DNA from: Parelaphostrongylus tenuis
Lineage: Eukaryota > Nematoda > Chromadorea > Rhabditida > Metastrongylidae
Assembly: GCA_019055375.1 (NCBI GenBank)
Contig: JAHQIW010003641.1
Coordinates: 1 to 64,000 of the forward strand
Reading direction: 5' to 3'
DNA length: 64,000 nucleotides
Both the position numbers and the translations under genes were made by a program. This document shows positions 190 through 50,600 of this stretch, piece after piece. Under the pieces are notes generated by a model. It had not been told where the DNA came from. It saw nothing but the letters and a program-made list of their open reading frames with translations, and did no database searches. How positions within the stretch are numbered: the stretch's first letter is position 1; every line of letters begins with the position of its first letter.

Positions 190-580
190 GCTTCGTGTAT
201 CGGGCTGTACAAAGACCCTCACCAGACCACATGACATGTTGGTTCAAATAAAATGAAGGGATCTATTGTAATTTGAACGTGGTCTTAATAAAACACTTGA
301 AATAAAGGTATAGTATGAAAAAACTACCAGCCAAAGAACAATCGAGTTACAACACTGCGTATTAGAGGAAAATTTCACTTGATATAGAGTGTAGAGCGTT
401 CGTCTTCGATAACTCTCTGTAGGGGGAGTAGAGCTTCCGATAGAACTGACTAATAAAAAGATCGAAAGACGACGGGTTCTGCCCGACTGACGAGTCTGTA
501 AGGACGAAACACGTGTATCGGGCTGTACAAGAGCTCACCAGACCACATGACATGCTGGCTCAAATAAAGTAAAAGGTTTC
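190..580. repeat. FB1 foldback element, right-end fragment plus partial copy
   Basis: Two FB1 right ends occur here (192-270 and 480-575), each with the shared block around ACGTGTATCGGGCTGTAC followed by a CATGACATG segment. The second keeps about 290 bases of FB1 interior and a full hammerhead-like core at 481-523. Confidence 0.6.
481..523 (+). ncRNA. Hammerhead-like ribozyme motif (FB1)
   Basis: Seen: helix I strand GCCCGA (481-486), core CTGACGA (487-493), helix II GTCT-gtaa-GGAC (494-505), GAAA (506-509), helix III palindrome ACACGTGT (509-516), cleavage-position A517, and helix I return strand TCGGGC (518-523), complementary over 6 bp. This is the arrangement of a type I hammerhead with minimal helix III. 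Activity is inferred. Confidence 0.65.
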
Positions 581-9800: not shown

Positions 9801-12149
9801 ATTTGTGATTAATCACAACTGCGTCTTTTTTCTGTATAATGCGAGTTCTATGACTCATATCGTTTCGAAGCGCAGGACAGAAAGATTTCGAAATAAGCGA
9901 TAAATCACTTGGAGACTCAAAAAGACAAATAAGTTTGTCTCACTAAATGACTATGCAGAGACTGTGTAAAAAAATTTTTTAGACAGTATCAGGTAAAAGA
10001 TGTCTGTGTTTATTCTACTGATGTGATATAAATACGCCGAATAAATAATTGATGACAAATAAAGTCGAAACAGGGAAAGAAAAACTGTCGGGATTATATG
10101 AGTCCTATGTGACTCGTCCCGTCATGAATGTCTTGACATGGTAGTGCAGTTTTCAACTAGCAACAGTTATTATTGTTTAGAGTGTACAGTCATATGGCTT
10201 GAACCTTTCCTTCGTCTTTTTGCTAATTAATCTTGTTCGCAATCAATATTTTCGGAAGAACACTGTTAGAAAGCTAATATTGCTATTATGGAAATAAAAT
10301 TTAATTTGAAAAGATTATTTATCCTTCAGTTGGCCAGTTTCCTAATTCACTGAGCTCTTTGAAAAGATGCTCATAAAAATCTCATAGAAATGCACAAACG
10401 TATAGCGATAGCTTGATAGTATTAAGTCTTCGAATCAGTCCTCGGCAGCGAATGTCGCTAATTAATAGTGGCTACTTTATACGAAATTGGCTGGCGGAAC
10501 ATCTGATGATGTTGTCAGAGAGGAGATAAACAAACTTTAAATCAACTTTATAATCCAAATGACACTCTAGGAGTAACATGAGGGAAATATCAAGACTTGA
10601 AACACTGTGGGGAGAATGGCTGAGCTATCGCGTCAAGTCTAAGGAAGAAGCAAAATGTTTTGTGGTAGGGGGTGTGATTACATTAGGTAACTTTTATACG
10701 AATGCATATGTTCATATATGAAGAGAACTCAAAAGTCTTTTTATCTACTAGATCTTTTTCAAGAGAACGCATGCAAGAACAGAAGGAAGTGATAAGACAG
10801 TTGTTCTAAAGTTTTGCAGGTGGCAGCAGCCTGAAGATAAATGAGAACGCGGTACAATAGCATGTAAAAAGTCTATGCAAATTTAACTGAGAAGAGATAG
10901 CAACATTCGTTCTATGCTGGTATTAATATTTGATCCTCGAATATAAAATAGTATTTGTGCTAAAACAATGAGAAGGGAGAGAAAAAGAAACACAGTACTG
11001 AAATGACCTATGACAAGAACGTGCTGATGGTAGCGTATCCACTGGTTTATCTTACAAACGAAGCCGTCAATGAAGCCATTAGTCCTTGAGTGTGTATTCA
11101 GTGCCACATTTATCAAGGGAACGCTTCACCTAATCCACAAGCTGTTTACTAGCAGTGATGAAGACCAGTGATCTCCCTAGCATCACTGTCTCAAAATTTC
11201 AAGGAGAATCTACTCGAGCGGTATCCAACGACATTCCTGAAGAAGACAAAGTGGTTAACTAGAAGCCATACCTAAACCCACAATACCACACTTCTTTCAA
11301 TGACGGATGCGAAAGAGCGAATCTAGTGAAAGAGATTACGGATTCTTTTAATATATGAAGTCTAGTGAATTATATTGGAAAAATTAATATGTACACCTAT
11401 ATATTTCTTTTAGTGTGTTACTAGTTAATATGTTGGGAGTGTCTCTCGATTTCATAGAATTTAGGAAAAAAGTGCATGGTTACTGCGAAAACATAAGGAA
11501 TTGCTTGCAGCTCAATGGCAAGTGGTGCTTATAGTGATGATACTGGAGATACTGGCAGTGCTATCTCATGATCCTAGAAAAAGTAAAACTATATCTAACC
11601 TAGTAACGACTTGAAATGCAAACGCATTATGCTCATTTTGCGCCGACAGGTAATGATCTTGCGAGCACTGTAGTATTTAGGAAGTTGGTAACGAAATCAA
11701 ATTACAAGTGAGAGCTTGCAATATGTCCTTAGGCGTGAACATTAATTCTACGAACTATTAAGTTTTGAAATCGCGAAGAATTAAAATTCTTAGAAGACTG
11801 GAAAGAAATTCAAGTGCTTTGAAAATTCTAAGTAGGTGAGAGGATCGTAAATTACAGAAGCAAGTATGAAAAAACACAATTGTGGGCCTGAATTATAACT
11901 TCCGTGGATATTCCACCAACACGTGGATATTTTCACCAACACGTTCAAAGCGATGGGAGCCGAGGACAGTTTTACGCATAATATACTTGTTCTTCCTGTT
12001 TGGTTCTATTGCAGTCATGCCGCTTGTCAAACATGATAATTGAAGCTTCCTCTAAGCAACAAGTTAGTACAACTTTAACAACACAACGATATTAACAAGA
12101 TTGACAACGTTTGCACAAGAATAGGAAATGGTAAAAGCTCACGCGAGAT
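6801..12149. other. Long gene-empty AT-rich stretch
   Basis: Short open frames occur, for example 9079-9285 on plus and 10883-11116 on minus, but none shows a recognisable domain or neighbouring exons. No tRNA box B or known window repeat is evident apart from faint SINE-like wording near 9410-9480. Confidence 0.4.
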
Positions 12150-12375
12150 GGTATATCTTTCCAAAACCGATAGCTGACATTTCGGCGACTTTGCCTTCCT
12201 CAGAGCCGTTTAACTACTTATACGGGAAAGGTCACCTTGTTACGCACACCTATTCATAGCGAGTGACATTGCAACTGTGACCTTTGCCGTATAAGTAGTT
12301 AAACGATTCTGAGGAATGCAAAATCAGCGAAATGTCAGCCATCGATTTTGAGAAAGTATACCAACCTTGCGAAAG
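12150..12375. repeat. FB3 foldback element, compact copy
   Basis: Arms of about 85 bases: GCTGACATTTCGGCGAC at the left, its complement GTCAGCC at the right, with TACTTATACGG and CCGTATAAGTA nearer the centre. The minus strand of the left arm reads CTGAGGA, then GGC..GCC, then GAAATGTC AGC. Confidence 0.7.
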
Positions 12376-16111: not shown

Positions 16112-16832
16112 AAGTGATTACTGATAACTAGATCAATCCTAAGTTCAATGCGATGGCGCGGCGGCGCTGTGTGGTTGCGCCGTCCCGAAAGTGTCGGGGC
16201 GTTTCTTTCTCAGCGAACCGACCCCTCCTATATTGATTAGTGGTTACTAGATCAGTCCAAAGTCCAATGCGGTGGCGAGCGGTGCTGTGTGAATGCGTCG
16301 GTCCCGAAAGTGTCGGGGCGTTTCTTTCTCAGCGAACCGACCCCTCCTATATTGATTAGTGGTTACTAGATCAGTCCAAAGTCCAATGCGGTGGCGAGCG
16401 GCGCTGTGTGAATGCGTCGGTCCCGAAAGTGTCGGGGCGTTTCTTTTTCAGCGAATCCTGCTCCTCCTATATTGATTAGTGGTTACTAGATCAGTCCAAA
16501 GTCCAATGCGGTGGCGAGCGGCGTTGTGTGATTGTGTCGTCCCGAAAGTGTTGAGGCGTTTCTTTTTGAGCAAACCGACCACTCTTATATTGATTACTGT
16601 TTAGCAGATCAGTCCTAAGTTCAATGCGATGGCGAGCGGCGCGTGTGATTGCGTCGTCCCGAAAGTGTCGGGGCGTTTCTTTTCAGCGAATCCTACTCCT
16701 CCTATATTGATTACTGGTTACTAGATCAGTCCTAAGCTCCAGTGCGACGGCGAGCGGCGCTGTGTGAATGCGTCGGTCCCGAAAGTGTCGGGGCGTTTCT
16801 TTCTCAGCGAACCGACCCCTCCTATATCTTAT
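16112..16832. repeat. 119-bp tandem satellite, six units
   Basis: The block TCCCGAAAGTGTCGGGG recurs at about 16183, 16302, 16421, 16540, 16657 and 16777, spacings 119, 119, 119, 117 and 120. Each unit runs from GATTACTGGTTACTAGATC through GGCGAGCGGCGCTGTGTG to GAACCGACCCCTCCTATA. The recurring block can fold as a CCCGA/TCGGG stem with a 5-base loop. The first unit is the most diverged. Confidence 0.9.
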
Positions 16833-20883: not shown

Positions 20884-23800
20884 AGGTATTATCGATAAAG
20901 AATCCTTTCGGGAAGAAGAAATTCACGGTGGAGATTCCTGTTGGTGGTCCACAAGATGGTCGTGTCTGGGAAACAAAGGCTCTGGCGGCAGTCAGGTGAG
21001 ATATTAACTCATGTGGTTTTCTTTTGACAGAGATATGCCCTGTCAAGGGTTTCTATTCCTACCATGAGTGTTAACTTGCTTTTATTTAATCTTTTTTTTT
21101 AGATGGTTCATTGCTGATACACTCAAGCCACACATGATGGTATGGTTGAGTGGTTTGCCTTCGAAATTCGCCAACAAGGAATTGGCTGACGAACTCAAGG
21201 CAGGTCTATGGGCAACGGAGAAGTGCATAGATGAGGTAGTGAGATTCAAAACATTCCTCATAATCGACAAGAGTTCTTATTAAACCCTTTCGGGACGGTA
21301 CACAAACCTTCTCTGCATCCCCAGCCCCAGCGTGGGAACGCATCGATCGTATTAGTACAATATTCCAATGATATTATTGTTGATATTCTCCTTCTTATGA
21401 TAACATCATATATTTACATACTACATTGCACAAAATAGCAACTGTAGAGTGGACGCTACAAGAATTTACTCGTCCCCAGGACGACCACCTCCACGTCGGG
21501 CGGATGTGTTCGTTAGAAGAATTGATCGGCTTCCAAAAAAAAGAATGTTTTTAGCTTAAACGAGGTTGGTACGCCAGGGCCATACACCAGTGTTTCGGAG
21601 GTTTCGGCCTACTCTTCAGTGACCCCGCCCCACATTAAGCCCCTGCATTGAAGCAAGGGGTTAGGCTTAATTCAATGCAGGGCTTAATGTGGGGCGGGGT
21701 CACTGACGAGGAGGCCGAAACCTCCGAAACACCGGTGTATGGCCCTGGCGTACCAACCTCGTTTTGGCTAAAAATATCCTTTTTTTTGGAATTAATTCAG
21801 AATGTTTATTACGAGGTTTTAGAAACAGTCGATCATATGGATTAATTGATCGGCTCTATTCATAGCTGTATTCGCATCAGCTGTGTTTGTACCTCCCGAT
21901 ATTCTACAGATCACCGTATGAAACTCACACCAGTGGCCATTCTTGCATGAAACACCACCATGGACAACAATCGCGAGAAGCAAGACGAATGGGAGCTGTG
22001 CTGGGGTCTGCACAATTTGTGAAGACGGATCGTCCAAGTTTCGAAGCAAGTTATTAACAAAATCACGCATTTAAACAGTTGAAAAATGCAGTTATACATT
22101 CGTGCGTTCCCACGCTGGGAGTTAGAGATACAGAAGAGGTGGAGCAGACCGTTCAGCATTGCCACGCTGGATGTTTGAGATGCGGAGGAGGTGGATCAAC
22201 AGTTCCGAAAAGGTTAATTTCTTTAGCGATGCGATGTTGTTATCACATATGCTATGATTTTAAGTGATATGCCACGGCTCCGAATCTCGGCGAGAGCTGA
22301 GCCCACGTTCCATCCTACTCGGGGACGCCTGCTAGCCACTGCAAAGCCGGGGCTCGTGTTGTTCTCACTCTATCTGAGGTCAATACCGATATGTGCTTAC
22401 CAGGCTAAACCATTAACGATGGTTTCTGACAGGTCGATACGTGGTTATCGCAGAAAGGTTGCTGGCAGAACAGGGACCGTGCTAGTGCAGTGATTAGCTC
22501 ACGCCCCCGGAAACGATGAGACACGGGTTCAACTCGCTGTGTTTTGATATTTTGCATATCTTGTCAGGCATCCTCTCCTCTAAGGGCGCGTGTGATCATT
22601 GGTTTCCCCGTAAAGGCAGTGGTTCTATCGATAATAATTTCGCGTACATATTCTTCGTTGGTCATGCAGTAGCGCGAATCTGATAAAAATAAGCTGATTT
22701 AGCTGACATTTCGGCGTATTTATTGACTTCTGAGCCGGCTTTATGCGAGCTGATTGTCAGTCAAAAATAAAACTATTGGCTCGAATCATAGCGCCTTTGG
22801 CGAAGAGTCAGTCAAATATGTATCAAGCTCGTGCTAGTGGCTTGTTTAACAAGGATTTTGTAAGTGAATGGTAGTGCAAAGCCAATATAAAAGTCGGTCC
22901 CCAAGCTGGAAACCTCAAAATTACTTTTTCCGGCTTATTGTTTACCTACCGGATGGTTTATCGCCTCATCTTGACCGGGTGTTCCTGAGTAGGACTGCTA
23001 AGTACAGCGGCGAGTTCAACTTCCTACAGTAGGGCCAGCAAAGCTGAGGAGTCCGACGTTTCCACTCGAAAAGTCCAGCTAAAGGTGATCCGTACACGAA
23101 ATCACTGCCGTTCCGGTAGCTACTAATGACTTGGTAGTAATCTCCCTCTGATCCACAAGATCGCTTGCGCGGCGACTGCTTCAACCTATTAAGGATCATG
23201 CAGTACGTTTCTTATCGTGCTTCACGACGTTAAATCTCACTCAGCTACTATTATGGCGGTGTCGCGACTCGTGGGAAAGCAGGCAGACAGCTAGACATGC
23301 ACGCACAGATATGCGCATGCCGCCTGTCCGTACCGCCGCGCAAGCGGCGGAGCGACGCCCCATGCCTATTAACGGTGGTCCCCAAGGGTTAATGTGGTGA
23401 TGACCTGATGAAGCCCATGCTAGGCTTACCCCGGTACATTATTTTACAGAGCAACTTAAACCAGCATAGTTTTCTGTGCTGGGGCCCGCGCTATCAGTCA
23501 AGACGGGCCGTACAAGTGCCCAAGTAAGTTTTATAGCCTTATTCTGTTTTTATATTTCAGCTCCTAGACGAGGTGTTACGAGGTTGTGCCGATTGTACTG
23601 CAGAGAGTTTTTACGAGGAAATCTGGAATCACGTCTCGGATCTGCTTTTTCCTCGGCATGATTGGGCTGAATTAACTCAACGATTAACGCCTTTCATGAT
23701 CAATCACTTCACTTCTATCAGGTGTGAGTACAGATCAATTTTTCCTATGTTCTTGAGCTTCAGTTTGTCAATTTACTGCTTCTCACAAAACATATGAGGT

Positions 23801-26800: not shown

Positions 26801-29800
26801 CTCTTCTACTGTAATATGTCAACTTACTGTCTCGTTGTCATCCGTTTGTTTGCTGGTTTGATCACCTAAGTTCAAGGCTCTGAAGATAGCGTGAGTCATC
26901 GGAATGTCAGCCACTGTATTATTGTATCGTTCAGCATTACCGTATAATTATATTGTATCACTGGTATTCAATAGCACTGCTATTACCAACCTCGGAATTG
27001 CTTATGAGGAAAAAGCAGCTGATTCATTCAACTAAGCTGAGGTTAATAAATAGTTGGTTGGAAGAGTTGTTTTACGGTTATCTTCGAGAATTGTTTTTGA
27101 GGAACACTCTTAGTGATTTCCAATGAAAGATGCCGTGTATTTCGCTTTGTAACGAAGCATTTTGTTTCCTGTCAACTCCATCTTTTTGTTCTATACGATT
27201 TGTGTAAATCTTTGAGTAATTTTATGACTCTAATATTAATCCTTTCCTTCGAGTGCTTTATTAAGCCCCTGCTCAAATTTCAATAGATCCTTTCATTTTT
27301 ATTTGAGCCAACATGTCATGTGTTCTGGTAAGGGCTCCTGTACAGCCTGAGACACGTGTTTCGTCCTTACAGACTCATCAGCCGGGCAGAACCCGTCGTC
27401 TTTCGATCTTTTCATAGTCAGTTCTCTCGGGAGCGTTACACTCCTTCTAGAGAGTTATCGACGACGTACGTTTTACACTCTATGTCAAGCGAAATTTTCA
27501 CCTAACACAGAGTGTTTTCGCACTCGATTGCTAGCTGGCTGGTATTTCTATCATATTATACCTTTCCTTCGAGTGCTTTATTATAACCACGTGTATCGGG
27601 CTGTACAAGAGCCCTTACCAGACCACATGACATGTTGGCTTAAATAATAATGAAAGGATCTAATATTGATTTTGAAGGGTAAATGGGCGATTCTGTCTGA
27701 ATCAACTTGTCATCGCTGTGGTTCATGCCACGTATGTTAAAGTAGGAAAAGCGTACGTTGAGCACGTACTTGAACGAACTGGAGGTCTTACTGTCGACGA
27801 AATGGAACAGGTACTTAGAGACTATGATTTGCATTCCCTGATATTATTGCCCCTCTTGCAGATCTACGAGGTTCTGTGGGAATGGTTGAGCAGAGTTCCT
27901 CTATATGATAAAGAAGAACTGCAACATATCCGTGATTGGGGCAAAGACTTCCTCAGGAAGGCGGTTATAGACCGCCTGACCGGTTCAGTGAGTATCTTTA
28001 TTGATATTTATTCCATGCTGAGGGCATAGAGCTTGATGTTGATAATAACCTTAGAGATGCGCCACGCACTTCATTAACCCTTTGGAGACCACGTGGTGCA
28101 AAACACAACATACCGCGCGACGTCGCGTCGCACTCAGCTACTGTAATGGAGGCGTTACGTCTCGAATCAATGTCAGGTGGGCAGCATTTACAGGCGCAAT
28201 CGATGTACAGATGCTGCCTGCTTGCCAATGCCACGCGAGCGACAATGTAGATGTGATGGAGCGGATATATGACTAATAACTGGAATGGGGGAAGGGGAGG
28301 AGGGGGGGGGGGGGGTGGCCAAGTGGTTAAAGATATTCGGCGCGGGTTCGATTCCCCCATTTACCTCAGCCTAGCTAATCTCAAGACTGCAAAGAGAGGT
28401 GTCCAATCAAGATTCGACGATGTTCAGGAAGGCGCAGTCGTTAGGGATGCTATGAAAGGGACTGATCCAGCGATACATCAATTCACTGTTTTTTCTTACC
28501 AGACGAAATCTGAACCATTTTTTTCTCTATGAAGTCATGAGGGTTTGAGTTTCTCGGGAAACCAAGCCAGCAACCACATTTGTATTACATGACATCTGTA
28601 ACCCTTGTACGGCTAACCGCCTGTGGACGTGTAGAAATACATATATCTATAGGCGCGTGTGGCCCAGTGGTTGTACATGCTCTGCGACACACCCTGGCAA
28701 TGGTTCGGTCCCGTGCCCAAGGTGTTCACGAAGCCCCCCATTCTTACGAAGTTGGCGTATTGGTACGAGACTTGTCTGCGAGGATAGCAGGAAAGATTCG
28801 ATACATCGGTAAGTTGCCGCGTGTCCTTCTGATGGTCAGATATGCATCTAATCATTTTAAACGATGCTCGATGAAGTCGGTTGCATACGTATCCCTCAAG
28901 AGTTCATCAACGCCAAGGGCTTTATCTACATATATGTATATATGTAAGCATTCATATGCATATACATATATATGTGTATTTGCATGTATATATGTATGTA
29001 TCTATGTGTACGTGTGTATTTGCACATGTATATGCACGTATATATGCGTGTATGTGCCTATGGACACACGTATATACAGATGTCTGCACACATATGTACA
29101 AAAACATATACATATATACACATATATACACATACTTTAGATTTATGACATGGCTGTAGTGAATTTCCCAAAATCCTATCCGACTTTGTCGACACTGCGG
29201 AATTGTATGATGAATGTGCAGGAGTATGGCCGAGAAAAATTGGTCAACACATTAATCCATGAAGTGGAATCGAAGCTTCTGCATATAGGTTAGTCCGTCT
29301 TACTTTTGACTGCCAGTGTTTTATTTGATACTTGAGCGGCCCGTCTTCACTGATGGTGCGAACCCCAGCACAGGGAAGCTGTGCTGGTTTAGCTGTTGTG
29401 TTCCCTGGAGCCTCGTGGTAAGTCTGAGTAAGGCTTCCTCAGATTACCACCACATTAGAGCATTCACCGGCCCGTGTGGATCAGAGGGAGGTCGCCACAT
29501 TGCGACTAGTAGCTGTCAAGGCGGCTGTCATTCCTGGTACGGTTTAATCTTAGCCGGGCTTTCCCGGTGGAAACGTCGGACTCTTTTTATGTTGGGTGGT
29601 GAACTGTACTTCGCAGTTCGACACCCAGGAACACTTCCCAGCAAAGATATGGATTTCGAATAGGTAGAAGCAGAGCGGTGGCCTTGCTGGTGTAGCGGTA
29701 GGACGTGCCTCCAGTGTGGGTGAAATACAAGTTGAATCTCTCCGGAGATCGAAAGTTTCGTATATTATACAGCTTGTTTTATTCTGTCTTCTGTTCCCAA

Positions 29801-32800: not shown

Positions 32801-35800
32801 TCTTTGACAGACCACTGACATGCGTGCTCAAAAAATGATTGTCAGCATTTTTTTCTTGTTCACGTCGTTTTTCATCTCAGCAAGAAAAACTGTGAATGAA
32901 TGAACATGCCGAGGTTGATGGAGAGTCGAACTTGCGAATTTCTATTGCAAATTGTCAAATATTCTGAGTCTTTAGGTACTCAACAACATACTTTTGCTCA
33001 TCTTATCGATTTTTGTTGAACTTTTCAGGTGAGAGTGGTCGCTTTCGACAGGCAGCAGACGTTTTTAATATGCTTGTATCTGTGTACGGGAGTAAGGATA
33101 TGTTTGTAAAAGAGTATCGTCAGTTGCTCGCGGAAAGACTTACAAGTAGTAACACCAAGGATGTGAGTAATCTTATCTCACAATGTTCTTCTACTCCTGA
33201 ATGTATCACTGTCAAATTTCATTTCAAATCTCTTTATCCTTTCGGAACCGTGAACCCACGGCCTCTGCGTCTCCAACTGGCAACTCCGGACGGTCTGCCC
33301 CGCTTTCTCTGCATCTCTAACCTTCACAAGACATTGTTAGGCGCATCACAGCTTTGTCAGATGAACAGCCCGCTATTGCTGGACGCAACACGCGGGGTTG
33401 GAGATGCGGAGGAGGTGGAGCAGACCGTCCAGAATTGCCACTTCTAGATGCAGAGCCCGTGGGTCCGCGATCCCGAAAAGGTTAATATTCATACGACCCT
33501 TCCACATTTCACTGTGCGAATCCCGGCACTTCTTTCATTCGATTCGTTTCTTCGCTTTCATCTTCCACAAAGGGCTTCAAATACTCCACGTGTCACTGCG
33601 TGCTGCTGTTCGAGGATTTCGCCTTTTCTATGAGTTTGTAGAATACTGGCCGCAAGGATTCTTCTTGTCAGTCTCAGAGATAGCCGAGCTGAAGCGTTCC
33701 CTAAGGCGCTCGTTAAGTGATTCCAAGAGATTGTGGAACAAAAGATCGAACAAGCGCCTTACTTCCGCATTTGCTTCTGATACACTGTGTCATCATCACG
33801 CTACCCTTATTCACATTAACAGTGTAAACTTTTTCAGCCGATTTTTGAGCGGCGGTATTTGGATCTGCTCAAACTTCGCTTTAATGAAGGTGAACTGCAA
33901 CAATGCGAAGTCATGCTGAAGGACATCCGAGATAGTCAACGAATCGACAGAACTGCCTTGGGAAAAAAGGTATGTTGATCGTAGGAACGACTTCCTAGGA
34001 CCACTATTTCTTGTTTAAAAGATTTCTAACATCCGGTAGAGACCACTTTTTAGTGTGTTCCAGTATCTGCTTGCATAATATCTGCCCATTTTTGGCCGAA
34101 AATCGACTCAGAAACGGTTGCGGTGGGTTAAATATTTCCATTTTCATTTGTGTAAATGTGATAATTTTGATTGTTATACGTATAACAGTCAGAATTCTTT
34201 TCATTTGACTGCCCTTTTTGTAGTGGTATGATGTTTATGGTATACCCTCTAATGTGGAGTTCTGTGCAAAAACATTTGCGTCAGCCGAGATTTGAACCCA
34301 GATCTCACTCTTTCCGGAAGCTATGCTAAGAAAAGAGATGAAGAAAGAGTGAGATCTGGGTTCGAATCCCGGCTCACGCAAATATTTTTGCACAGCAGTC
34401 CACATTATCGGGTGTTTTATACGTATGCTTGAACGATCCGTCATCGTACTTTATTGTGTGGATCCCAATACTTCTAACATTTGATTCGTTTTCTCGTATA
34501 CATCCTCCACAAGTCTCTTAACTTTTCGCATGTTCAGCACGAATTTGAGACTTTACGACAGTTCCGACTCTCGTCTTTTTAGTGATCACCGTACAGTGTT
34601 GGTTGAGCAAATCTTGCAATGTCAGAGGTACCCAAGCTAGAGAGTTGGTTAGGGCGTTCGTCGATTAATTACGAGGATATTAGGAGATAGGATTGAACCA
34701 AAGCCTTGCTCCCTTAGCCTATGTCACTAGCAACTCGGCCACAGCCATCTTCATTACATTCTAATCATTGATATCGGTTATTGTTAGGCAAATGGCGCAG
34801 TTCTGTTAGGCGCGATTAGTCTGCAAGTATTGCATATTTGATCACTGCTATGAAGCCATCTGAACCAGGAACTTACTTGCTGCTTTCGGACTTTTTGTAT
34901 AGAAACTGAGTTGTGAACTCGACTCTGAGCGAAAATGTGAGAATTGGTGTTTGATGTAAACGAAAAGCGGAAGCGGCGACAGTGGCCGGATGGTCTAGGG
35001 GTATGATTCTCGCTTCGGGTGCGAGAGGTCCCGGGTTCGAATCCGGTTCGGCCCAACTTTTGTATGGAGACCAGGTGCTTTCAGTTGCTCTTATAAGCGT
35101 GAATATTTTGAAGTCTGTGCTTGAACTCTCGAAACGAAGCCCATTCTCGCTTTTCTGTCGCTGCAGACGACGCCTTCCATAAGTACCTGACTACGGACTC
35201 AATCGTTTTAGCGCCACAAGATTGTTAATGGTGTTCGAGTCAAAGCAATAAAGGAAACACTGCCAGTGTTTGATGGATCTAGATACGATCTTCACTTTGG
35301 ATCTAAGAGGTCCCGGGTTCGAAGCCCGGTTCCTCTCGACTTCTGAATATAAGTCAGCATCCTGAAATCGTTCTGATGAACAAAATTGTGGGGAAACTTA
35401 TGCTTCAAAACCTTCGTGACAACACCTAATTCCTCTCTTATCCGCATCCTTGGACGCTTTTTTGAAATTTTACGGACTCAGCGGTTTTCAGTTCTTTGGT
35501 GAGCCGCAATTTCTATAAGCTCTAGCGCTATTATTTCTGTATGCCCAGTTTTCTAATCTTACAGTTGTCAGGAATTTCCGCCAGCTCTCGAAGAAGCTCT
35601 TGTAGAGTATGAGAAAGCGTTCATGGATCATAAGGAGTCTCGACGTCTGCAATGGATGAGAGGCGTTGGGTGAGCACTCAAACTTACTGAGAAATTTGTA
35701 TTTTTCGCTTTGTGTGTATACTTTCAATGATAAGCTAAAACGAGATTGGTAAAAGAATACTTAGAGCTGTAAAACAATACGTAAGACTACTTCATTTTTC

Positions 35801-38800
35801 TTTCCTTCCGAGTGTTTTCTCAAGACCACAGCTCAAATTCCAATATGCTTGATAATCATTTTTGAGCCACGCATGTCAGTGGTCTGTCAAAGACTTCATT
35901 TATTAGATCCGTCTCACACTGTGTACGGTGCGAATCCCATGGATCTAGCATTCAACTCGTTATTCGTTTCTATCTTGAACGTCGTTAAATGCTGGTTGAG
36001 CGCGTATGTCTGCAATATCGGAGATGGCCTGATTGTGACGTTCTATGGGACGTTCGTTCTTGACTGCCGAAAAGTGTTGGGGGTGGGATTGGTCCCACAC
36101 GCCGCGACAAGCATCACAACTACTTGATCACCCGCTTCTCCACTCCATAGGTGATATTAGTACGAATTGAATGAAATTACGTCTCATAACTATTATTTGA
36201 GCGACATGTCATGTGGTCTGTTATGAACTCTTGTACAGCCCGGTACACGTGTTTTAGCCTTCCAGCCTCGACAGTCAAGCAGACCCTTCGTCTTTAGCCA
36301 ATCCTCTCTGGGGCCCCTACATCCCCCTATAAAGAGGTGGACGACGACCGAACGATTTAAACAATCGCCGTCAAGTGGAAAATCTGAAGATTGGCAATTT
36401 ACGACAATTTCTGAATGAAATTGATCTAAGAGTGTTGACATGCAGAAGATTACACCCCAGACGGAGGCTGAACCCGCGTTTCATCCATACTGAGAATGTG
36501 TCTTACCACTGCACTATCAAGCCTATGGCTTTGCTACCACTCATTTTTCTATATAAACTAACAAAACTCTCAGCCGCCAACCTTAACGTGTTTGGTTTTA
36601 TATAATTAGGACATCACAACACTGCTAGAGAGCAGCAAAACAAAGGATTTTCATAGGTATTGAATTGAACCAATATAGCCCGCGTCTCATCCTTTTCGAT
36701 TTTTCCCTGCATAAAGTCGTAGCAGAAGAGAAATCGCGGTAGTGCAGTGGTTAGCACGTACCCCGGAGAGGGTAAGGCGCGAGATCACCACTCGTTCGAC
36801 GTTTAAGATTTTGCATCACCGCACATTATTGGGTAATTCAGTGAAGTCAATCTACTTAATAATATTGTACTAATGAAGTAATGTATCATAACATTCGTTT
36901 CGAGTGTTTTCTTAAGACCACAGCTCAATTCAATATGCCTTGCAATCATTTTTGAGCCACGCATGTAAGTATCTGTCAATGAGGGCAATGAGGGAAGTAA
37001 TGTATATCGATCAGTTGTCTGATGAAGAGTTGGTTTTGCGATAGATATCATTTCAGGTGCGTAGAAGTCTCGTTGAAGCTAGGAGATGTCGAAGTGAATA
37101 AGGTGGTACCAAATCCCATCGCTGCTGTTCTATATCTTTATTTGGAAAAAGGTTTGCAATACGATTCTATTGTATAGCCTATATTTTTAGATTTAACTGC
37201 CCTTAATAGAGGTATGATGTCGCAATATTTGTCTAGAAAGATTAAATGGCCTGGAGAAATTCCACATCAGTCGGGAGTTGAACTCGTGTTTCACCTTTGC
37301 CGGGGCATTGGCTACCACTACAGCACCAAGGCCACCACTTTGCCACCCTTTCTTTGATATAAACTATCGAAGCTGTCAGGAACTAACCCCTATTTCGGCA
37401 TTGAACCTACTTGAGCTGACAGCTTCAACTGAACATATAATCTATATTTCTTCAATTGAACTGCTTCTTATCAGTGGTATGATGTGGGAACATTCATCTG
37501 AGAACACTGAGTGGTACACTAATTCGACTTCAGGCGAGAGTTGAAGCAGCCGTTCAAGTCTACCGGGGTCGCTTACTACCACTATACTTCGAGGACTGCT
37601 GCTTTTCTAGCTTTCTTTCTTCGACATAAACTATTGGAGCTGTCAGCAACCAACTCTTAACGGTATTTTTATATAGAAAAAAGAGTGTTCGTAGAGCGTT
37701 GGACTTGTTGGTTTGGTGGGACCACACGCCCTCCGTAAGGGCGAGATTCAAGTTTAACTCCCGCCCGAGGTCGGATTTTTGCGTACCACTCAATCTTCTT
37801 GATGACATATTTTACTGTCGCAATGTCTCTTGAGGACATTTGAGTGAATTTACCAGTATGATACAATATAATCAGTGTAAAATAACGGAGTAGTAGAAAT
37901 GATAGTAACGACAGTATTGACCTCTTGGGAATGGCGTGCATGCGGCTAGCTTCCTCGGAAACCCTCCTGTTGCACTGTGGAAGTTTACTGGGAATATTAA
38001 GTCAAAGGAAAAGTTAATGCTTATTGAACGATGGCACGATTCTACAATTCTGAGAGGTCCCAACTCTTTGGAGTACTCAAACAATCAAGAAACCCAAAAT
38101 TAATTCCAAAAAAAGAATGTTTTTAGCCTAAACGAGGTTGGTACGCCAGGGCCATACACCGGTGTTTCGGAGGTTTCGGCCTCTTCGTCAGTGACCCCCG
38201 CCCTACATTAAGCCCTGCATTGAAGCAAGGAGGGAGGCGTATGTGGTAATGGCCTAGTGTACAATGACACTGGTCCATCACCACTGTTCAGTCGATGGTT
38301 TTCAACTGGTAGACCAAAATAATCCACATGATCGACTGTTTTTATCAAGAAACTATTGAGAGTTATCTGTGAATTGACACCTTATGCAGTGCGCAGCATC
38401 ATTTTTGGCAAGGTTTCCATTGCTTTCTGATCTCTTCACTTTAAGTGTCATAATCCAAATATTTTGTTTGACCTCCTATTGCGGTGTTATGGTGTTACAA
38501 TAAACCCGATGATGTAGAGTGGTGTGCAAAAACGTTTGCGTCAGCCGGATTCGAACCCACATCTTACTCTTTCCGGGAGCATGTGCTAAACCGTTGCACC
38601 ACCGACGCTGGTGCGTCAGCCGGGATATAAGTGTTATACATGTATGATAGCATGGGAGGGTGTATATCAAAGCATGGAGCGTCAAAATAATAGCAAAAAA
38701 ATTCGAATCTCAGTCAGAAAAGAGAAGAATTTCAAAAAATAAAATTGCCCTCCGCGCAGCAATTTCAACTACAATCTCCAGAGAGTTAATAATAGGAGTG

Positions 38801-41800
38801 AGAACAGAGGAAAACTTAAGACGGTTCGTTGTAACTTTATTGCATTGGTGCTGCAATCCGGCTATTTTTCCTTTAGTTGGTTTTTCCTAGGTCATTTAGG
38901 GATAGAATTTCTTTTTATAGAAAGCTGGACTATTGCTGAGGTGGCTGAACGATTGTCTATTTCGAAAGGAGTTGCCCGTCGTCGATTGGAGTGGTGGAAG
39001 TCTCAGGGTCTTCTGACACAAGTGTGTAAAATTTCTTCTCTGAGTAGATCTTCTTAAGTTTTTTCTTATATGCCTGATAATCATTTCTCGATCCAAGCAT
39101 GTCAATGGTCTGTCAAGGAGGGCTGACTTATAGAGCCCGATACACGTGTTTCGATCTTGCGAACTCGTCAGTCAGGCAGTTACTCTTTATCGTCCTTTGC
39201 TAATCTCTGTGGGTGCTCCAGTCCCCACACTAAGAGTTAGCGACGACGAACGTTTTACACTCTATGTCCAGTGAAAATCTCACCGAACACAGAGTGTTGT
39301 ACACTCGATTGCTTTTGGCTGGTACATAAGTCAGCCCTCCTTGACAGACCACTGACATGCGTGGCTCAAGAAATGATTACCAGGCACATTGAATTTTTGA
39401 GCTGCGATTTTGAGAAAACACTCAAATCGAAAGATATGAGTTTTTTTCTTATATTTGGGTTTTTAAAATGCTTAAGATAGATATGAGGAAAAACTGGGTT
39501 CTATTTCTTGGTATCACAGAATCTTCCAACCGGTGCAACTGCTGAAGAGTGGTCGCTGGTGACGAATCCAACCTTGCTAGCGACATCACGTAATGCTGCC
39601 GATGATGAATCGGATGAAGACGAAGAAGCAATAGAGGATACGACCGATGCAATCGATGCTTTGGAGCAATATTGGAGTTATACGAAGAATTTCATTGTGA
39701 GTTTGAACGTTTACAACCCGGACACTTGACATGTTAACGTAATTCTGTCATTTTTTATTTTTACACAGCATATTATCACAATTTTACTGGCGAGGTCCCT
39801 GCCCTTCGTGCATTCGTTTACTCGCCCCATGTGCACAAAAATTTTCGAATGTCTCACGTGATGCTTTGGCTGCTTCTTAAAGATTTCATGAAGCTAGTCT
39901 TCAAATATCTCGGCGTTGATCAATCCCGACGGATTGTACCATGCATTGGTCTTCCTAGTATCGAATGAGGTGGTTGAATGCATATCTGGCCTTTACGATG
40001 ACCCGCTGCGGCCTACCGCCATACCAGCTCAGTGCTATTGTTTACCCAGACTTGTCCAGTACCAAATTCACCTGTTCCGGAGGATAGGAAGGCTTGATGA
40101 GCCTTGAGCACAGGAATAAACCATCGACAGTGTGTTTGATTGATCCATGAGGGATACATATTGCATTCACCTTCATCCTACATCGTCAGAGGTGACTGAG
40201 GACAAATTTGACATTTACGATGACTCGCGGTGACCTGCTGATGCATCAGATCAGTTCTGCTGTTCTTCCGAGACATTAGAGCGCATGTGGCGCAATGCTT
40301 AGAGGTGTTCTGCGTCGCACTGAAGGTCGATGGCTTGATCTCGCGCTTATGGCTCACAAACCTTCCATCCCTTCGCAGTTGGTAAACTGGTAACGGAGTG
40401 GTCGTAGACTTGTCTGGGAGGATAAGCAGTACAGACTCGATGCAGTGGGAGACCGCCTCGAGTAATTGTAAAGGCCAGATATGCATTCAGTCACTTCGAA
40501 CGAACTTAAAAATTAAAAAAAAAGAAGACGAATTGACGGTGCATCCCCTAGGGATTGACCTACGCCGAGAGCTTTATCCATTGGTCTTTTATTTTCCGAG
40601 ACAAGTCTGGCACGAATTTTCCGAGCGCGGAAGGATGGAAGGCTTTGAGCCTTGAGCGCAGAGTCAGATCTCCGATCATCGGTTGACCGATCATCTGTGT
40701 CGCAAAATACCACTAAGCACTGCGCCACATACGCGAAGATTTTATATTCTCTATAATTGTCGTAGAATGCTGGTTGAGAAGATACTTCGCCTCGCAACTA
40801 GCCGAAAGCTAAGGTGTTCTGAGGCGTTCCGCTGATTGATTGCAAGAGAGTGAAGGGAACCAAATCAAATCAGCGCCTTGCTTATCACTGTGCTTCATGA
40901 TGCAATGCATCGCTAATCGCAGCGCTGACCCTTTCAAAGTATTGTGGCCTGCAACTACCTCCTATCTGCTATTTTAGACCAGTTTTTTCAAAGCTGTCGG
41001 ATTGAACTCTTTTTTTTTTGTTTCAGTCATCATCAGGTCATAATATTTGGGAAATGGGTAACACATTGGTTAGAAGTTCCCAGCAGTACACTCGGGATAG
41101 GTTGCTGGTAAAGTCGTTATCCCGGACTCACCATGCTCCCTATATAGCTGGTGTTGGGAAGTAAGTAGCAGATTTGTCTGGGAGGACAAGAGCACTGATT
41201 TTGTAAGTCAGTTGACTATTGCGAGTCACTGTAAAGACCCAATATGCTTTTAATAGCTTCAAACGATGCTTTACAAAGTGAAATCCATGACACATCCTCA
41301 AAGGAGTGGTAAATGGCGAACGCTATGCTGTTTTATCTTGCGAACTGTGGCTTTTGTTACACAATAGTATCTTGATGCTTGCAGTTGTCGGTGAAGGGCC
41401 GGTGGCTAAGTAGCTAGTGATGCTCGACGCAGTGCGAGGCGAGGTTGATCCTCCGGGTACCCCCAATACCCTCCTATAATAAGGAGCGCTCTGCGAAACG
41501 CCTCAGCCTGGCTAACTCTGAGGGTAGAGACGTGCCCGATGATTATTTCAGCGTTCACGAGGAGGACAAAACCCTCAATGAAGCGAGGAGACGAATCGAA
41601 TGCTAGAAGTATTGAGACCCATACAAGTAAGGGAAAAACTATGATAAGGAATTAATAGCATTTCAGTGCATCTCACATTGTTATGATCTTTTCTATATAC
41701 CTAAGAGAATTGAGTGGTGAGCAAAAACACGGCCTCAGGCGGGAATCGAACCCGCGTTCCATCCTATCCGGGGACGCGTGCTCTACCACTGCACCACCGA

Positions 41801-42639: not shown

Positions 42640-43015
42640 AGTACATCCTGGCAGCATATTTTAAGCTTTTATGAGGTCTGTTATGGCACTATCAGTACTA
42701 TACGTACGTTTCGCCTTTCTGCCCTCATCATAGCACTGTGTCTTTCGGTTGATTACCTGTGAGGGAATATACCCCAACATATAAGAGAATCGACGCCGAA
42801 TTGGTCACAGTTTCTGTAAAGTGAGATTGTGAAAAGATGTAGAGTGATCTCGCAGGCTGTGTAACTGATTTGGCGTTGGTTTCCCTATATGTAGGGTATA
42901 TTTTCTCACAGGAGATTGGCTGAACCGAAAAGCACCGGTGCTACTGATGAGGTCAGAAGGGCGAAACGTACGTCTAGCACTAAAACTGTCGTGACAGACC
43001 TCGTGAAAGGCTAAA
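42640..43015. repeat. FB2 foldback element
   Basis: Left arm GCATATTTTAAGCTTTTATG to CTTTCGGTTGATTACC; right arm GGCTGAACCGAAAAGCACCG to TGACAGACCTCGTGAAAGG. The arms mirror each other; both hold a CTGATGA-type core (TGATGA with one base lost on the left). Confidence 0.75.
42938..42980 (+). ncRNA. Hammerhead-like motif (FB2), 715 nt past the apc-2 stop
   Basis: Helix I GTGCTA (42938-42943), core CTGATGA (42944-42950), helix II GGTC-agaa-GGGC (three pairs, one mismatch), GAAA (42963-42966), helix III palindrome ACGTACGT (42966-42973), C42974, return TAGCAC (42975-42980), perfect 6 bp. Sense to apc-2. Confidence 0.6.
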
Positions 43016-47621: not shown

Positions 47622-50600
47622 ATGGCGGTCACGTTCAATCCGGCTGATCTCACCGAGGAAGAGGTATGTCAGCTGCGTGGCTTGCGAAAACGGAAAATGG
47701 AACTCATGGGCGAGATCGAGAACATCAAAAATGAGGTTAGCTCGAGTTTTTTTCTCTTTAACCGATTTTTTTTTTGCTTGGTTCTTTTCAATTTCGCTGT
47801 TTGTATTGGTTGAGGTGGTAGGGAGCTACGTAAAGAAGCATTGATGGAGTATTGATCTTTAGATATTTATTACTTATCCAAGCCTACAGGTATATGTCTC
47901 CCAGGCCATTCCTGCAGCCTTTATCGTATAAGTTAGAGGTGTTGAAAGAAGTGCAAATTGTAGTTTTCATAATAACAGCAATTCTTTCGTTTTGAGCGTT
48001 TTCTTAAGACCACAGTTCAAATTTCAATATGCCTGATATTCATTTTTTGAGCCACGCATGTCAGTGGTCTGTCAATGAGGGCTGACTCACAGAGCAGCGC
48101 TCTGTGTTCGGTGAGTTTCACTGGACATAGAGTGTAAAACGTTCGTCATCGCTAACTCTTAGTGTGGGAACTGGAGCACCCACAGAGATTAGCAAAAGAC
48201 AGAAGGGTAACTACCCGACTGACGAGATCGCAAGATCGCAACACGTGTATCGGGCTCTATAAGTCAGCCCTCTTTGATAGACCACTGACATGCGTGGCTC
48301 AGAAATTGCTTATCAGGCATAACAGCAATTGTTGGCAAAATCAACGCAAGCACCTCAGATACCTGCGATACTGTGATAAGAGGGATTTGAAAGATTTCGT
48401 GTTACAATTTTTCTTCCTTAAAGTTGCATGTTTGTTTGTTTACAACCATAATTTACTAGTAGTGTCGTCAGTATTTTTTGGATACTATTCATCTGTCTTT
48501 GCAGTGTTTTTTTCACTGTGCGGATCCTAGTACGTTTGATATTCAATTCTTTTTTTTTTGTGTTCTTCCTGAACCTCGTAGAATACTGGTTAAGCCAGTC
48601 GACTTGCAATCTCGGGGATAGACCGGCTGTGGCGTTTCACAAGGCGTTTGTTGCCGACTGTTGGAGGGTTGGGTTGGAGGTGAAACTCGGCTCCACGTGA
48701 GCTGCGACGAGCTTCGCTAGCACTCTGCTCATAGCTCCCGCATTGTTGGGTATTGGTTCATAACTAAACACTAATCTGCTTTAACTAGCGCGTATTCAAA
48801 TCCCGCCTACGGTTCAGGCTCAGCATCCTCGACTATACGGACATAAATATTCTGTCATAGACAATTATCAATTAGTGATGATTCATGACTTTTTTTTCGA
48901 CTACTTTTGAGACCTCGCTCAAAACAATGATTAATAACATATTTTGAGCCTTTCATGAGATCTATAATTGGCGCTTAGTTTTGATCGAGGTTACAAAAAC
49001 ATTCGAAAGGGTTTGACAGCATACGTTTTACCAGTCATAAGCAGTCGAGTGTATCGCACTGCCCGTTAGGTGATTTTGTCACTTACCGGTACGTGCAAAT
49101 AATTATTTCGACATTGGTTCTTCTACATAGGTTGAAATCCCCGGGAAACTGACTGAGCTATGAGGCGCTGTGCACACTGACGAAGGTGCAATGCCGAAAC
49201 ACGTGCCTTGCATTGTATAAGTGCTCATAAGATGCCTTATGAAAGGTTCAGTTTTTTTTTTGCCAGGTAATTGTGGAGTATCATGACATTCGTTTCGAGT
49301 GTTTTGTTAATATCGCGCTCAAATTTCAGTAGGTGTGTTTATTTTTTTGAAGCAATGCATGTGGTCTGTTATGGGCAATTTATAGAGCCCAATAAACGTG
49401 TTTCGGCCTTGACAGCCCCGTCAGTTGGGCTCTCGAGGGAACCCATCCCCTTACGTAGACGCGTAGCCGTGCTATCTGCATGTGCCGTCAGGTGAAGGAA
49501 ACTACTAGGTCGGCAGTGTTGTGCACTCGATTGCTCTTGGCTGGTATTTATGAAATGGTACCGTTCGTTTCGCTTGTTTTCTTAGGACCGCGCTAGAATC
49601 TCAATATATCAATATGCCTCATAATTATTTCTGAGCCATGCGCATGGTTTGTGGCACTTTTACTCTGCCAGTACACGTGTTTCGGCTTTTTACCCTTGGC
49701 TGACGGCGTGTGTAAATTTACGTTTGTGGTTCCTCTTCGCAAGAGGGTTCTCTTCCTAAGAGTGAAGAAGTTGAAAGGCCGAAACACGTGTATTGCACTG
49801 TATAAGTGCCCATATGAGACCACATGCATAGCTCAAACCTAATGATTGGGCATATTGAAGTTTGAGCATGATCCTAAAAAAAAATACTCTAAAAGAGTGG
49901 CTTAAAACTTTTCATGAGGTTAATGACCCTTAAACTCATATTTTCGTGCGATTTGTGATGACTCAGTTATCATGCGGTTTTTTAAACGATAGATTCATTC
50001 ATGCCATTCTAATGAGTAATAGATAACCAGGAATTGTTATCATTGCGTCATTCATTTGAACGATTATTACATTTTTCTTCATGGCAGGCAGTCTATAAAA
50101 TGGTGGAAATATTTGTTATTAATATCATGTATTAGCTATTTCCTGCAAACCTGATATATGCATTATAAAACTAGAAGAAGACACTATTTTTCTCGTACGA
50201 TGTGGGAACTGCTAGCCACGGCAAAGAAAAGGAGAAAGCGTATCTTACCCTTGAGCGAGGAAGTGCGTCTTTTCCACTTAGTTTTCATATGGTGGCATTT
50301 TTATTATCTTTATCCCCTTGTATTCATTACCCTTCGAAGTTTATTTTTTATCTTTTCTTGCAGCTATGTTTTCTGTTGATTAAAGAACATTATTTACATT
50401 TATTTTTGGTCATTCTCCTCTTAGTAGCACAAATTTCCAAGGCTATCCCTCACGCTGGACAAGATCTTCTTCTTATAAAGAGTGTTAGTAAGCATTCGAA
50501 AGCTTAAATCTCTGGCTAGCGCTTGCATGGCCGGTTTTGTCAAAAAGAATCTTTTATGACGCTGTAAAATTTAAAATGAAAGTATGTTTTACACAGGGCG

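What the first reader, a model, noticed from the sequence alone, without database searches (positions are those of the whole stretch)
21695..21747. Hammerhead-like self-cleaving ribozyme in sense orientation in an apc-2 intron (FB4)
All invariant core positions (CUGANGA, GAAA, UH) are present, with a 5-bp helix II, a 5-bp palindromic helix III and an 8-bp helix I. If active it would cut the apc-2 pre-mRNA intron. The palindromic helix III suggests dimer-assisted folding, as described for minimal type I hammerheads in Penelope-like elements.
Basis: partly seen in the sequence, partly recalled or inferred. Interest (0 to 1): 0.88.

Follow-up and report, generated by a model that had tools for sequence, protein, structure and literature searches.

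The report
Ribozyme-bearing foldback retroelement in worm intron
The reported self-cutting RNA motif is real, but it belongs to an abundant small mobile element inserted head-to-head with its own mirror copy in a nematode gene, where that mirror copy probably keeps the ribozyme switched off.

Summary
The hammerhead at 21695-21747 (+) is real and not chance. It lies in the sense strand of an apc-2 intron (between exons 21101-21241 and 23552-23725) of a strongylid-like nematode. It is not a ribozyme of that intron: it sits in the right arm of a head-to-head foldback of a short mobile element (21532-21843) with a 12-bp target-site duplication and a 48-nt tail at one end only. The left arm carries the same ribozyme on the other strand.

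The genome holds 1,631 matches to this ribozyme. Some copies are direct tandems of a 270-bp unit. Of 34 loci examined, all 25 inverted neighbours are head-to-head; 11 of 24 loci have 10-14-bp duplications, all 11 with a tail at exactly one end. These are published marks of Penelope-like elements (PLEs). Endonuclease-bearing PLEs of this genome carry related minimal hammerheads and a similar 3' end and tail.

Tandem transcripts are predicted to form a double hammerhead at 0-8.6 kcal/mol above the best fold (4 arrays). In FB4 the antisense arm is transcribed first and buries the ribozyme (80-88 kcal/mol), so efficient cutting of apc-2 pre-mRNA is unlikely. Best reading: a retrozyme-like, non-autonomous PLE. 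Activity and PLE mobilisation are inferred.

The parts
21532..21843 (.). FB4: one mobile-element insertion, two truncated units head-to-head
   Evidence: Inverted repeat, flanking 12-bp direct repeat, family of relatives in the genome
21520..21531 (.). Left copy of target-site duplication AATTGATCGGCT
   Evidence: Perfect 12-bp direct repeat with 21844-21855; repeats of 12 bp or more in 9 of 24 head-to-head loci against 0 of 552 mismatched pairings
21844..21855 (.). Right copy of target-site duplication AATTGATCGGCT
21531..21642 (-). Left arm (unit in - orientation, no tail)
   Evidence: 94% complementary to 21680-21791
21680..21791 (+). Right arm (unit in + orientation)
21695..21747 (+). Hammerhead ribozyme, all core positions intact; predicted cut after A21739
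21577..21625 (-). Hammerhead of the left arm, antisense to apc-2; one mismatch in helix II
   Evidence: Model R1 26.0 bits, E 1e-4
21755..21762 (+). 3'-end motif AACCTCGT, can pair with 21811-21818
   Evidence: 295 of 320 cells paired in 41 related copies; 1000 shuffles of the 3' letters reach at most 279 cells
21796..21843 (+). 48-nt one-sided tail, resembling the ORF start / tail of endonuclease-bearing PLEs
38098..38229 (-). Solo single-arm copy of the same element, hammerhead at 38149-38197 (-)
   Evidence: 93% identical over 133 bp; R1 24.3 bits, E 3e-4
21101..21241 (+). apc-2 exon upstream of FB4
   Evidence: tblastn with H. contortus APC2 P0001 and D. viviparus P0002; protein search E 7e-17, 83% identity
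23552..23725 (+). apc-2 exon downstream of FB4
   Evidence: tblastn with P0001

Best explanation
FB4 is an insertion of a short non-autonomous retroelement of the Penelope kind (retrozyme-like, 270-bp unit, no ORF) in an apc-2 intron of a strongylid-like nematode. Each unit carries a minimal type I hammerhead with a loop-less palindromic helix III, a 3'-end motif and a tail region. In direct tandem copies two successive hammerheads pair their palindromes, form a double hammerhead and cut the transcript into 270-nt monomers; these (linear or circular) are reverse transcribed and inserted by the protein of endonuclease-bearing PLEs in the same genome. That process leaves head-to-head inverted copies, 10-14-bp target-site duplications and a one-sided tail of about 48 nt. 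FB4 is such a head-to-head product. In apc-2 pre-mRNA its antisense left arm emerges first and zips up the sense ribozyme into a 112-bp hairpin, so the intron is most likely spliced out uncut. Shown: the motif, its location, the family, orientations, duplications, tails, base-pair covariation. Predicted: the folds. Inferred: cleavage, 270-nt RNAs, PLE mobilisation, silence in FB4.
For: Motif and independent model hit. Covariation of all three helices: 135 of 140 cells paired over 10 hammerheads, at most 117 in 2000 shuffles. Family: 1,631 genome matches to the 35-nt hammerhead pattern with up to 2 mismatches, 0 to the pattern read backwards. 34 loci: 25 of 25 adjacent opposite-orientation pairs head-to-head, 0 tail-to-tail. 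Cut-site spacing 270, 270, 270, 271, 270 nt in L018. Duplications of 12 bp or more in 9 of 24 loci against 0 of 552 controls; 11 of 11 loci with 10 bp or more have a tail of 38-49 nt at exactly one end. Endonuclease PLEs: 150 of 150 scored GIY-YIG places over the cut-off, frames up to 902 aa; hammerhead-like motif in the 3' repeat of 12 of 12 fetched PLE loci; FB4 past its ribozyme resembles the PLE's own 3' end and tail in the five loci that show a tail there (0-16 of 500 shuffles as good). Double-hammerhead folds against burial in FB4. PLE hallmarks in print: PMC3846280 (passages), PMC11167929 (main text).
Against: No catalytic, RNA or insertion assay. FB4 versus PLE similarity past the ribozyme is modest: the PLE's own 3' region beats shuffles clearly in L055 (0 of 500), L054 (2) and L050 (4), less so in L059 (12), L051 (16) and L057 (18), and not in the other six of 12 (34-271 of 500). 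The PLE's own hammerheads have a 2-bp helix III and are not found by model R1 at E <= 10. No autonomous element with exactly the FB4-type repeat was found. 13 of 24 head-to-head loci show no duplication of 10 bp or more. The double hammerhead is not the MFE in 2 of 4 arrays with two readable cores, and 3 of 7 tandem stretches tested have only one readable core. Nested MFE folding ignores co-transcriptional kinetics and proteins. In Anolis the PLE ribozyme needed protein and was dispensable for insertion in vitro (PMC11167929), so the ribozyme may not be needed for mobility.
Confidence: 0.76

Rival explanations
1. A domesticated intronic ribozyme that cuts apc-2 pre-mRNA and so regulates apc-2.
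For: All core positions intact, sense strand, inside the intron.
Against: One of over 1,600 matches in the genome, with its own target-site duplication and tail; buried by the antisense arm at 80-88 kcal/mol; no second sense copy in the foldback for dimer action. Conservation of this insertion in relatives could not be tested.
Confidence: 0.05
2. A foldback or MITE-type DNA transposon with terminal inverted repeats moved by a transposase; the hammerhead is a passenger.
For: Near-perfect inverted repeat with direct repeats at the ends.
Against: Direct tandems and solo single units of the same family exist; in the 11 loci with clear duplications the two ends are never alike, one having a tail of about 48 nt, on either side; the duplications vary from 10 to 14 bp; the covarying hammerhead.
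Confidence: 0.06
3. A PLE-moved element in which the hammerhead is no longer active and is kept only because copies are young or because the structure is needed for insertion.
For: PAc ribozyme mutants inserted normally in vitro (PMC11167929). Only 33 of 68 arms keep all 17 pairs, and conservation of the ribozyme over its flanks is slight: 0.93-0.96 against 0.87-0.90 modal frequency for the multi-nucleotide segments.
Against: Compensatory changes in all three helices across families; double-hammerhead fold at or near the MFE in tandem arrays.
Confidence: 0.2
4. Chance resemblance to a hammerhead inside a hairpin.
For: No Rfam hit over threshold.
Against: 0 in 300 shuffles, E 4.7e-6 with an independent model, covariation.
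Confidence: 0.01
5. The foldback serves as a small-RNA hairpin (siRNA or miRNA-like) source.
For: 112-bp arms; weak sub-threshold microRNA hits, best mir-4446 at 36.4 bits against a cut-off of 79, as any long hairpin may give.
Against: No small-RNA data; microRNA families fall far below their cut-offs.
Confidence: 0.07

Closest known systems
Minimal type I hammerheads in Penelope-like elements (Cervera and de la Pena 2014; Lunse et al. 2017; neither paper is held, known here through passages of the reviews PMC6155905 and PMC7761336)
   Same: CUGANGA/GAA core, very short helix III, ends in helix I, in the repeats of PLEs, thought to act as dimers; thousands of dispersed copies in metazoan genomes are already reported (PMC7761336)
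   Different: FB4-type helix III is 5 bp and loop-less, longer than the 2-bp form in the EN-bearing PLEs of this genome; the carrier has no ORF
Metazoan non-LTR retrozymes (PMC7229834)
   Same: Short (270 bp) non-coding tandem units each with a type I hammerhead, predicted to give monomer RNAs
   Different: Ribozyme is of the minimal kind; insertions show PLE marks (head-to-head copies, one-sided tail, 10-14-bp duplications); circular RNA not tested. PLE mobilisation was only proposed as a strong candidate there
Endonuclease-bearing Penelope elements of Adineta vaga (PMC3846280, passages)
   Same: Inverted terminal repeats, most often head-to-head, 8-10-bp duplications, optional 31-bp tail on one inverted repeat
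   Different: FB4 has no ORF; tail about 48 nt
SMalpha SINE-like elements and W-elements of Schistosoma (PMC8490949, passages)
   Same: Short repeated element with type I hammerhead in a parasitic worm
   Different: Different phylum; sequences and insertion marks were not compared here

Membership tests
Hammerhead ribozyme, type I | CUGANGA, GAA(A15.1), U16.1-H17 core | tested here: met
Hammerhead ribozyme, type I | Three helices, open at helix I, with compensatory variation | tested here: met
Hammerhead ribozyme, type I | Rfam RF00163 match at gathering score | tested here: not met
   a sister motif in the window also falls just short, 31.6 against 34. This is a detection threshold, not a structural feature
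Hammerhead ribozyme, type I | Loop I - loop II tertiary contacts | not testable with these tools
   No 3D RNA tool
Hammerhead ribozyme, type I | Self-cleavage after H17 | not testable with these tools
   Bench assay
Penelope-like element insertion | Inverted terminal copies in head-to-head order | tested here: met
   25 of 25 adjacent opposite pairs in 34 loci; 12 of these loci (FB4 included) match the foldback query over most of its length, 13 were picked mainly for single-arm or multiple hits
Penelope-like element insertion | One-sided tail and target-site duplication | tested here: met
   11 of 11 loci with duplications of 10 bp or more, FB4 included; 13 further loci have no such duplication
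Penelope-like element insertion | RT plus GIY-YIG ORF | tested here: not met
   No reading frame of 130 aa or more overlaps 21532-21843; the claim is therefore only a non-autonomous derivative. GIY-YIG frames elsewhere in the genome
Penelope-like element insertion | Sequence shared with an autonomous PLE of the genome | tested here: inconclusive
   3' end and tail alike; 0-16 of 500 shuffles as good in the five loci with a tail, 18-271 of 500 in the other seven
Metazoan retrozyme | Tandem units of about 150-400 bp with type I hammerhead, no ORF | tested here: met
   L018, 270-bp spacing; 267-271 nt in L012, L042 and L048
Metazoan retrozyme | Abundant linear and circular monomer RNA | not testable with these tools
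   No RNA data

The most novel reading that the evidence does not exclude
These elements are the missing link between retrozymes and Penelope elements: 270-nt ribozyme-cut RNAs of a nematode that are inserted in trans by PLE protein, leaving its signature at the insertions; and the head-to-head product is a built-in off switch, because the mirror copy masks the ribozyme, which lets such insertions be tolerated in sense orientation in host introns.
Probability: 0.35. Interest if true: 0.75.

Novelty: new variant of a known kind. Interest (0 to 1): 0.56.

Why it matters
Which machinery moves metazoan retrozymes is open; PLEs were named only as a strong candidate (PMC7229834; PMC7761336), and the role of the minimal hammerheads in PLEs is called unknown there. 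A short tandem hammerhead element with insertion marks of the PLE kind (one-sided tail, head-to-head copies, duplications) in a genome with many endonuclease PLEs makes that idea directly testable. It also warns that a perfect ribozyme motif in an intron may be silent because of its surroundings. On print: among the papers listed (15 of 16; 1 of 1; 7 of 7; 12 of 34; none holds all of Penelope, Haemonchus and hammerhead) no title or abstract start deals with retrozymes or hammerhead-bearing PLEs of nematodes. I saw listings only, and the library holds only open-licence papers.

Tried and rejected
Rfam type I model as judge: rejected as insensitive here. Single-molecule MFE as judge: it gives a non-hammerhead fold of -19.7 against -17.2 kcal/mol for the hammerhead with a 3-bp helix III, because the program cannot hold a loop-less hairpin. 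microRNA families: far below their cut-offs. Phage collection: no match. PDB search for the 21104 exon: no hit, replaced by the protein database. Pfam scan of 6-15 kb, three + frames: nothing. An automatic search for the 3'-end/tail helix gave mostly noise (second half) and was replaced by fixed columns. 487-type similarity to FB4 past the ribozyme: not significant, 95 of 500 shuffles as good. The alignment with element 63061 misplaced its longer helix III, so that row was dropped before the model was built and the pairs counted; it is included. R1 hits in PLE loci (42.1 bits in L054, 30.7 and 24.1 in L058, 25.6 in L060) are other short elements, not the PLE's own motif; two of the three best FB4 scores (L058, L060) come from such copies, so one search repeated the comparison on the PLE's own 3' region only. 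Rfam RF00163 over the whole genome: not completed.

Full report
What was claimed and whether it is there. The motif at 21695-21747 (+) is exactly as described: CUGACGA, a 5-bp helix II, GAA, a palindromic loop-less helix III ACACC/GGUGU, H17 = A21739 and an 8-bp helix I. A strict scan gives four full hammerheads in the window (481-523 +, 21695-21747 +, 63055-63101 +, 51064-51106 -) and none in 300 dinucleotide shuffles. Rfam does not list it: no hammerhead family over its gathering score in the whole window, none at E <= 10 in 501 nt, and only RF03152 at 12.3 bits, E 5.6, in 76 nt. As a control, the equally clear motif at 481-523 reaches RF00163 with 31.6 bits against a cut-off of 34. A tandem stretch of L018 gives no hammerhead hit at E <= 10. 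I therefore built a model from five hammerheads of the window that are not of the FB4 type (63061 was dropped because it misaligned) and searched the window without filters: FB4 is found with 30.7 bits, E 4.7e-6, its left arm with 26.0 bits, the solo copy 38149-38197 with 24.3 bits. In all, 20 of 32 listed matches have E <= 0.025, five of them the training rows. E-values of this model are rough.

Base pairs. In the five training rows 95.7% of cells pair, 7 of 14 pairs show changes on both sides, and sliding the partners by 1-3 columns drops pairing to 18-43%. With FB4, its left arm, 38191, 63061 and L018 added (10 rows, partly related), 135 of 140 cells pair; 2000 shuffles reach at most 117.

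Where it lies. The exon at 21101-21241 matches APC2 of Haemonchus contortus (83% identity in the protein search, E 7e-17; 2 of 7 candidates at E <= 0.001, the other from Dictyocaulus viviparus). tblastn places apc-2 exons from 20886 to 42219 on the + strand, with FB4 between 21101-21241 and 23552-23725. Human APC2 in the PDB matches three downstream stretches, the first weakly. The host is thus a strongylid-like nematode. SL1-like RNAs in a 568-bp tandem array agree (36 matches among 50 scored, up to 47 bits, under the cut-off of 75). The genome has 481.5 Mb in 5,105 contigs.

What carries it. FB4 is an inverted repeat, arms 21531-21642 and 21680-21791, 94% complementary, 37 nt apart, flanked by a perfect 12-bp repeat AATTGATCGGCT at 21520 and 21844. 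DNA search of the own genome scored 40 of 1,387 candidates and gave 122 matches on 39 contigs. I examined 34 loci on 33 of these contigs: 12 search loci, 20 stretches (picked mainly because several hits lay close together) and two places of the window; search loci that repeat the same place were left out, and six contigs (C75, C771, C911, C2725, C4115, C4798) were not examined. They show solo units, direct tandems and inverted pairs. All 25 adjacent opposite pairs are head-to-head; 21 neighbouring matches are in the same direction, some of them pieces of one unit, as in L030. 12 of the 25, FB4 included, come from loci that match the foldback query over most of its length, which favours them; the other 13 were picked mainly for single-arm or multiple hits (two of these, on C4762 and C2832, also list a long match). 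In L018 one inverted unit is followed by direct units whose cut sites are spaced 270, 270, 270, 271, 270 nt. The 35-nt hammerhead pattern occurs 1,631 times (824 and 807 on the two strands) with up to two mismatches and never when read backwards.

Insertion marks. Of the 25 head-to-head loci, 24 had both flanks (L018 ran off its locus). The longest exact repeat between the two ends is 12 bp or more in 9 of 24 loci against 0 of 552 pairings of ends from different loci, and 10 bp or more in 11 of 24 against 6 of 552. In all 11, one end carries a tail of 38-49 nt past the unit's 3' end and the other lies between -13 and +2. FB4 has -5 on the left and 48 on the right. The remaining 13 loci show no duplication of 10 bp or more.

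Penelope connection. GIY-YIG domains score over the cut-off in 150 of 150 scored places (1,723 candidates), with open frames up to 902 aa; several lie in divergent pairs, for example C3445 53957 (-) and 57878 (+) (pairs not counted). L050 holds a 902-aa frame between two repeats, each with GGCU-CUGAAGA...GAAACGUC-AGCU, then ACACCTCGTGTTTTGCTTAAA and CGAGGTTAATAGACAGTCGG. 12 of 12 fetched PLE 3' regions have a CTGANGA...GCC(G/A)AAA motif; in L052 the GAAA is broken. Five of them (L053-L057) carry TACCAACCTCGT downstream of it, in L055 one C shorter; FB4 has TACCAACCTCGT at 21751-21762, closer to its ribozyme. Against the PLE's own 3' region only, FB4 21748-21843 beats shuffles in L055 (0 of 500 as good), L054 (2), L050 (4), L059 (12) and L051 (16), the five loci that show a tail there; the other seven give 18-271 of 500. 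An earlier comparison gave 3 of 1000 for L050 and 5 of 1000 for a tandem unit of L048 against L050; element 42944 aligns to FB4, and element 32751 to the PLE, with scores reached by 0 of 500 shuffles; the 487-type does not align to FB4 past the ribozyme (95 of 500). So the relation to PLEs rests mainly on the insertion marks and on the 3'-end/tail resemblance, and only moderately on alignment scores. The 3'-end motif AACCTCGT can pair with ACGAGGTT at the tail start in 295 of 320 cells of 41 copies (1000 shuffles reach at most 279; the copies are related, seven from one array), with a T-A to C-G double change in one subfamily. Matching motifs, ACCTCG and CGAGGT, stand in the PLEs.

How it works. 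The dimer MFE of the 53-nt ribozyme is -54.7 kcal/mol and is a full double hammerhead; two monomers sum to -39.4. A 360-nt stretch of L018 with two units folds, without constraint, into the same double hammerhead. Of seven tandem stretches tested, four have two readable cores, with cut spacing 267-271 nt. The double hammerhead is the MFE in L018 and L012, which belong to one subfamily; it is not in L048 and L042, which are closer to FB4. There it lies 0.8 and 8.6 kcal/mol above the MFE with long flanks and 0.5 and 0.0 with short ones. In FB4, by contrast, 50 of 53 nucleotides pair with the left arm, and forcing the hammerhead (3-bp helix III) costs 80.0 kcal/mol once the ribozyme has emerged and 87.8 thereafter. 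So tandem copies could cut and FB4 should not. Of 68 arms, 52 keep a readable core and 33 keep all 17 pairs; the ribozyme is only slightly better conserved than its flanks, which is what dead copies of an active source would show and does not by itself prove selection.

Comparison with print. PLE repeats with head-to-head inverted copies, 8-10-bp duplications and a 31-bp tail are described in A. vaga (PMC3846280, passages). Internal initiation that explains the tail, and a protein-assisted hammerhead that is dispensable in vitro, are described in Anolis (PMC11167929, main text read). Metazoan retrozymes of about 170-400 nt and PLEs as candidate movers: PMC7229834 (abstract, passages and discussion) and PMC7761336 (passages). 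The latter also says that thousands of dispersed minimal type I hammerheads are known in metazoan genomes, so their number here is not new in itself. Cervera 2014 and Lunse 2017 are not held and are known here through these reviews.

Verdict. FB4 is a head-to-head insertion of an abundant retrozyme-like, PLE-type element. Cleavage, monomer RNA, trans mobilisation and silence in FB4 remain to be shown.

Noticed in passing
window 481-523(+), 51064-51106(-), 63055-63101(+), 39135-39177(-), 27345-27387(-), 42938-42980(+), 48213-48255(+), 49387-49430(-): Further hammerheads of other short-element families: the first three pass the strict scan, the next three have one helix mismatch, the last two a changed core base. 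20 model matches at E <= 0.025 in 64 kb, a high density.
   Followed up: partly
window 12149-12363: Another inverted repeat (85%) with PLE-like CTGAGGA...GAAATGTC motifs in both arms.
   Followed up: no
window 58051-58421: Diverged relative of FB4 (67% identity) with inverted arms and weak ribozyme matches.
   Followed up: no
window 16115-16827: Six copies of a 119-bp tandem repeat; no hammerhead core pattern match lies in it.
   Followed up: no
L050 and G000 in general: Endonuclease-bearing PLE with an open 902-aa frame; the 12-bp stretch ATTGACAATGGA is seen at both ends. Several GIY-YIG domains lie in divergent pairs.
   Followed up: partly
G000:C3131:160-24504: SL1-like RNA array with a 568-bp period, scoring under the Rfam cut-off.
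   Followed up: no
window 34984-35054, 38537-38608, 41731-41803: Three tRNA matches of modest score; two look alike and may be tRNA-derived repeats.
   Followed up: no
window 21755-21762 with 21811-21818 and relatives: Possible helix between the 3'-end motif and the tail, with matching motifs in the PLEs; perhaps a recognition structure for the reverse transcriptase.
   Followed up: partly
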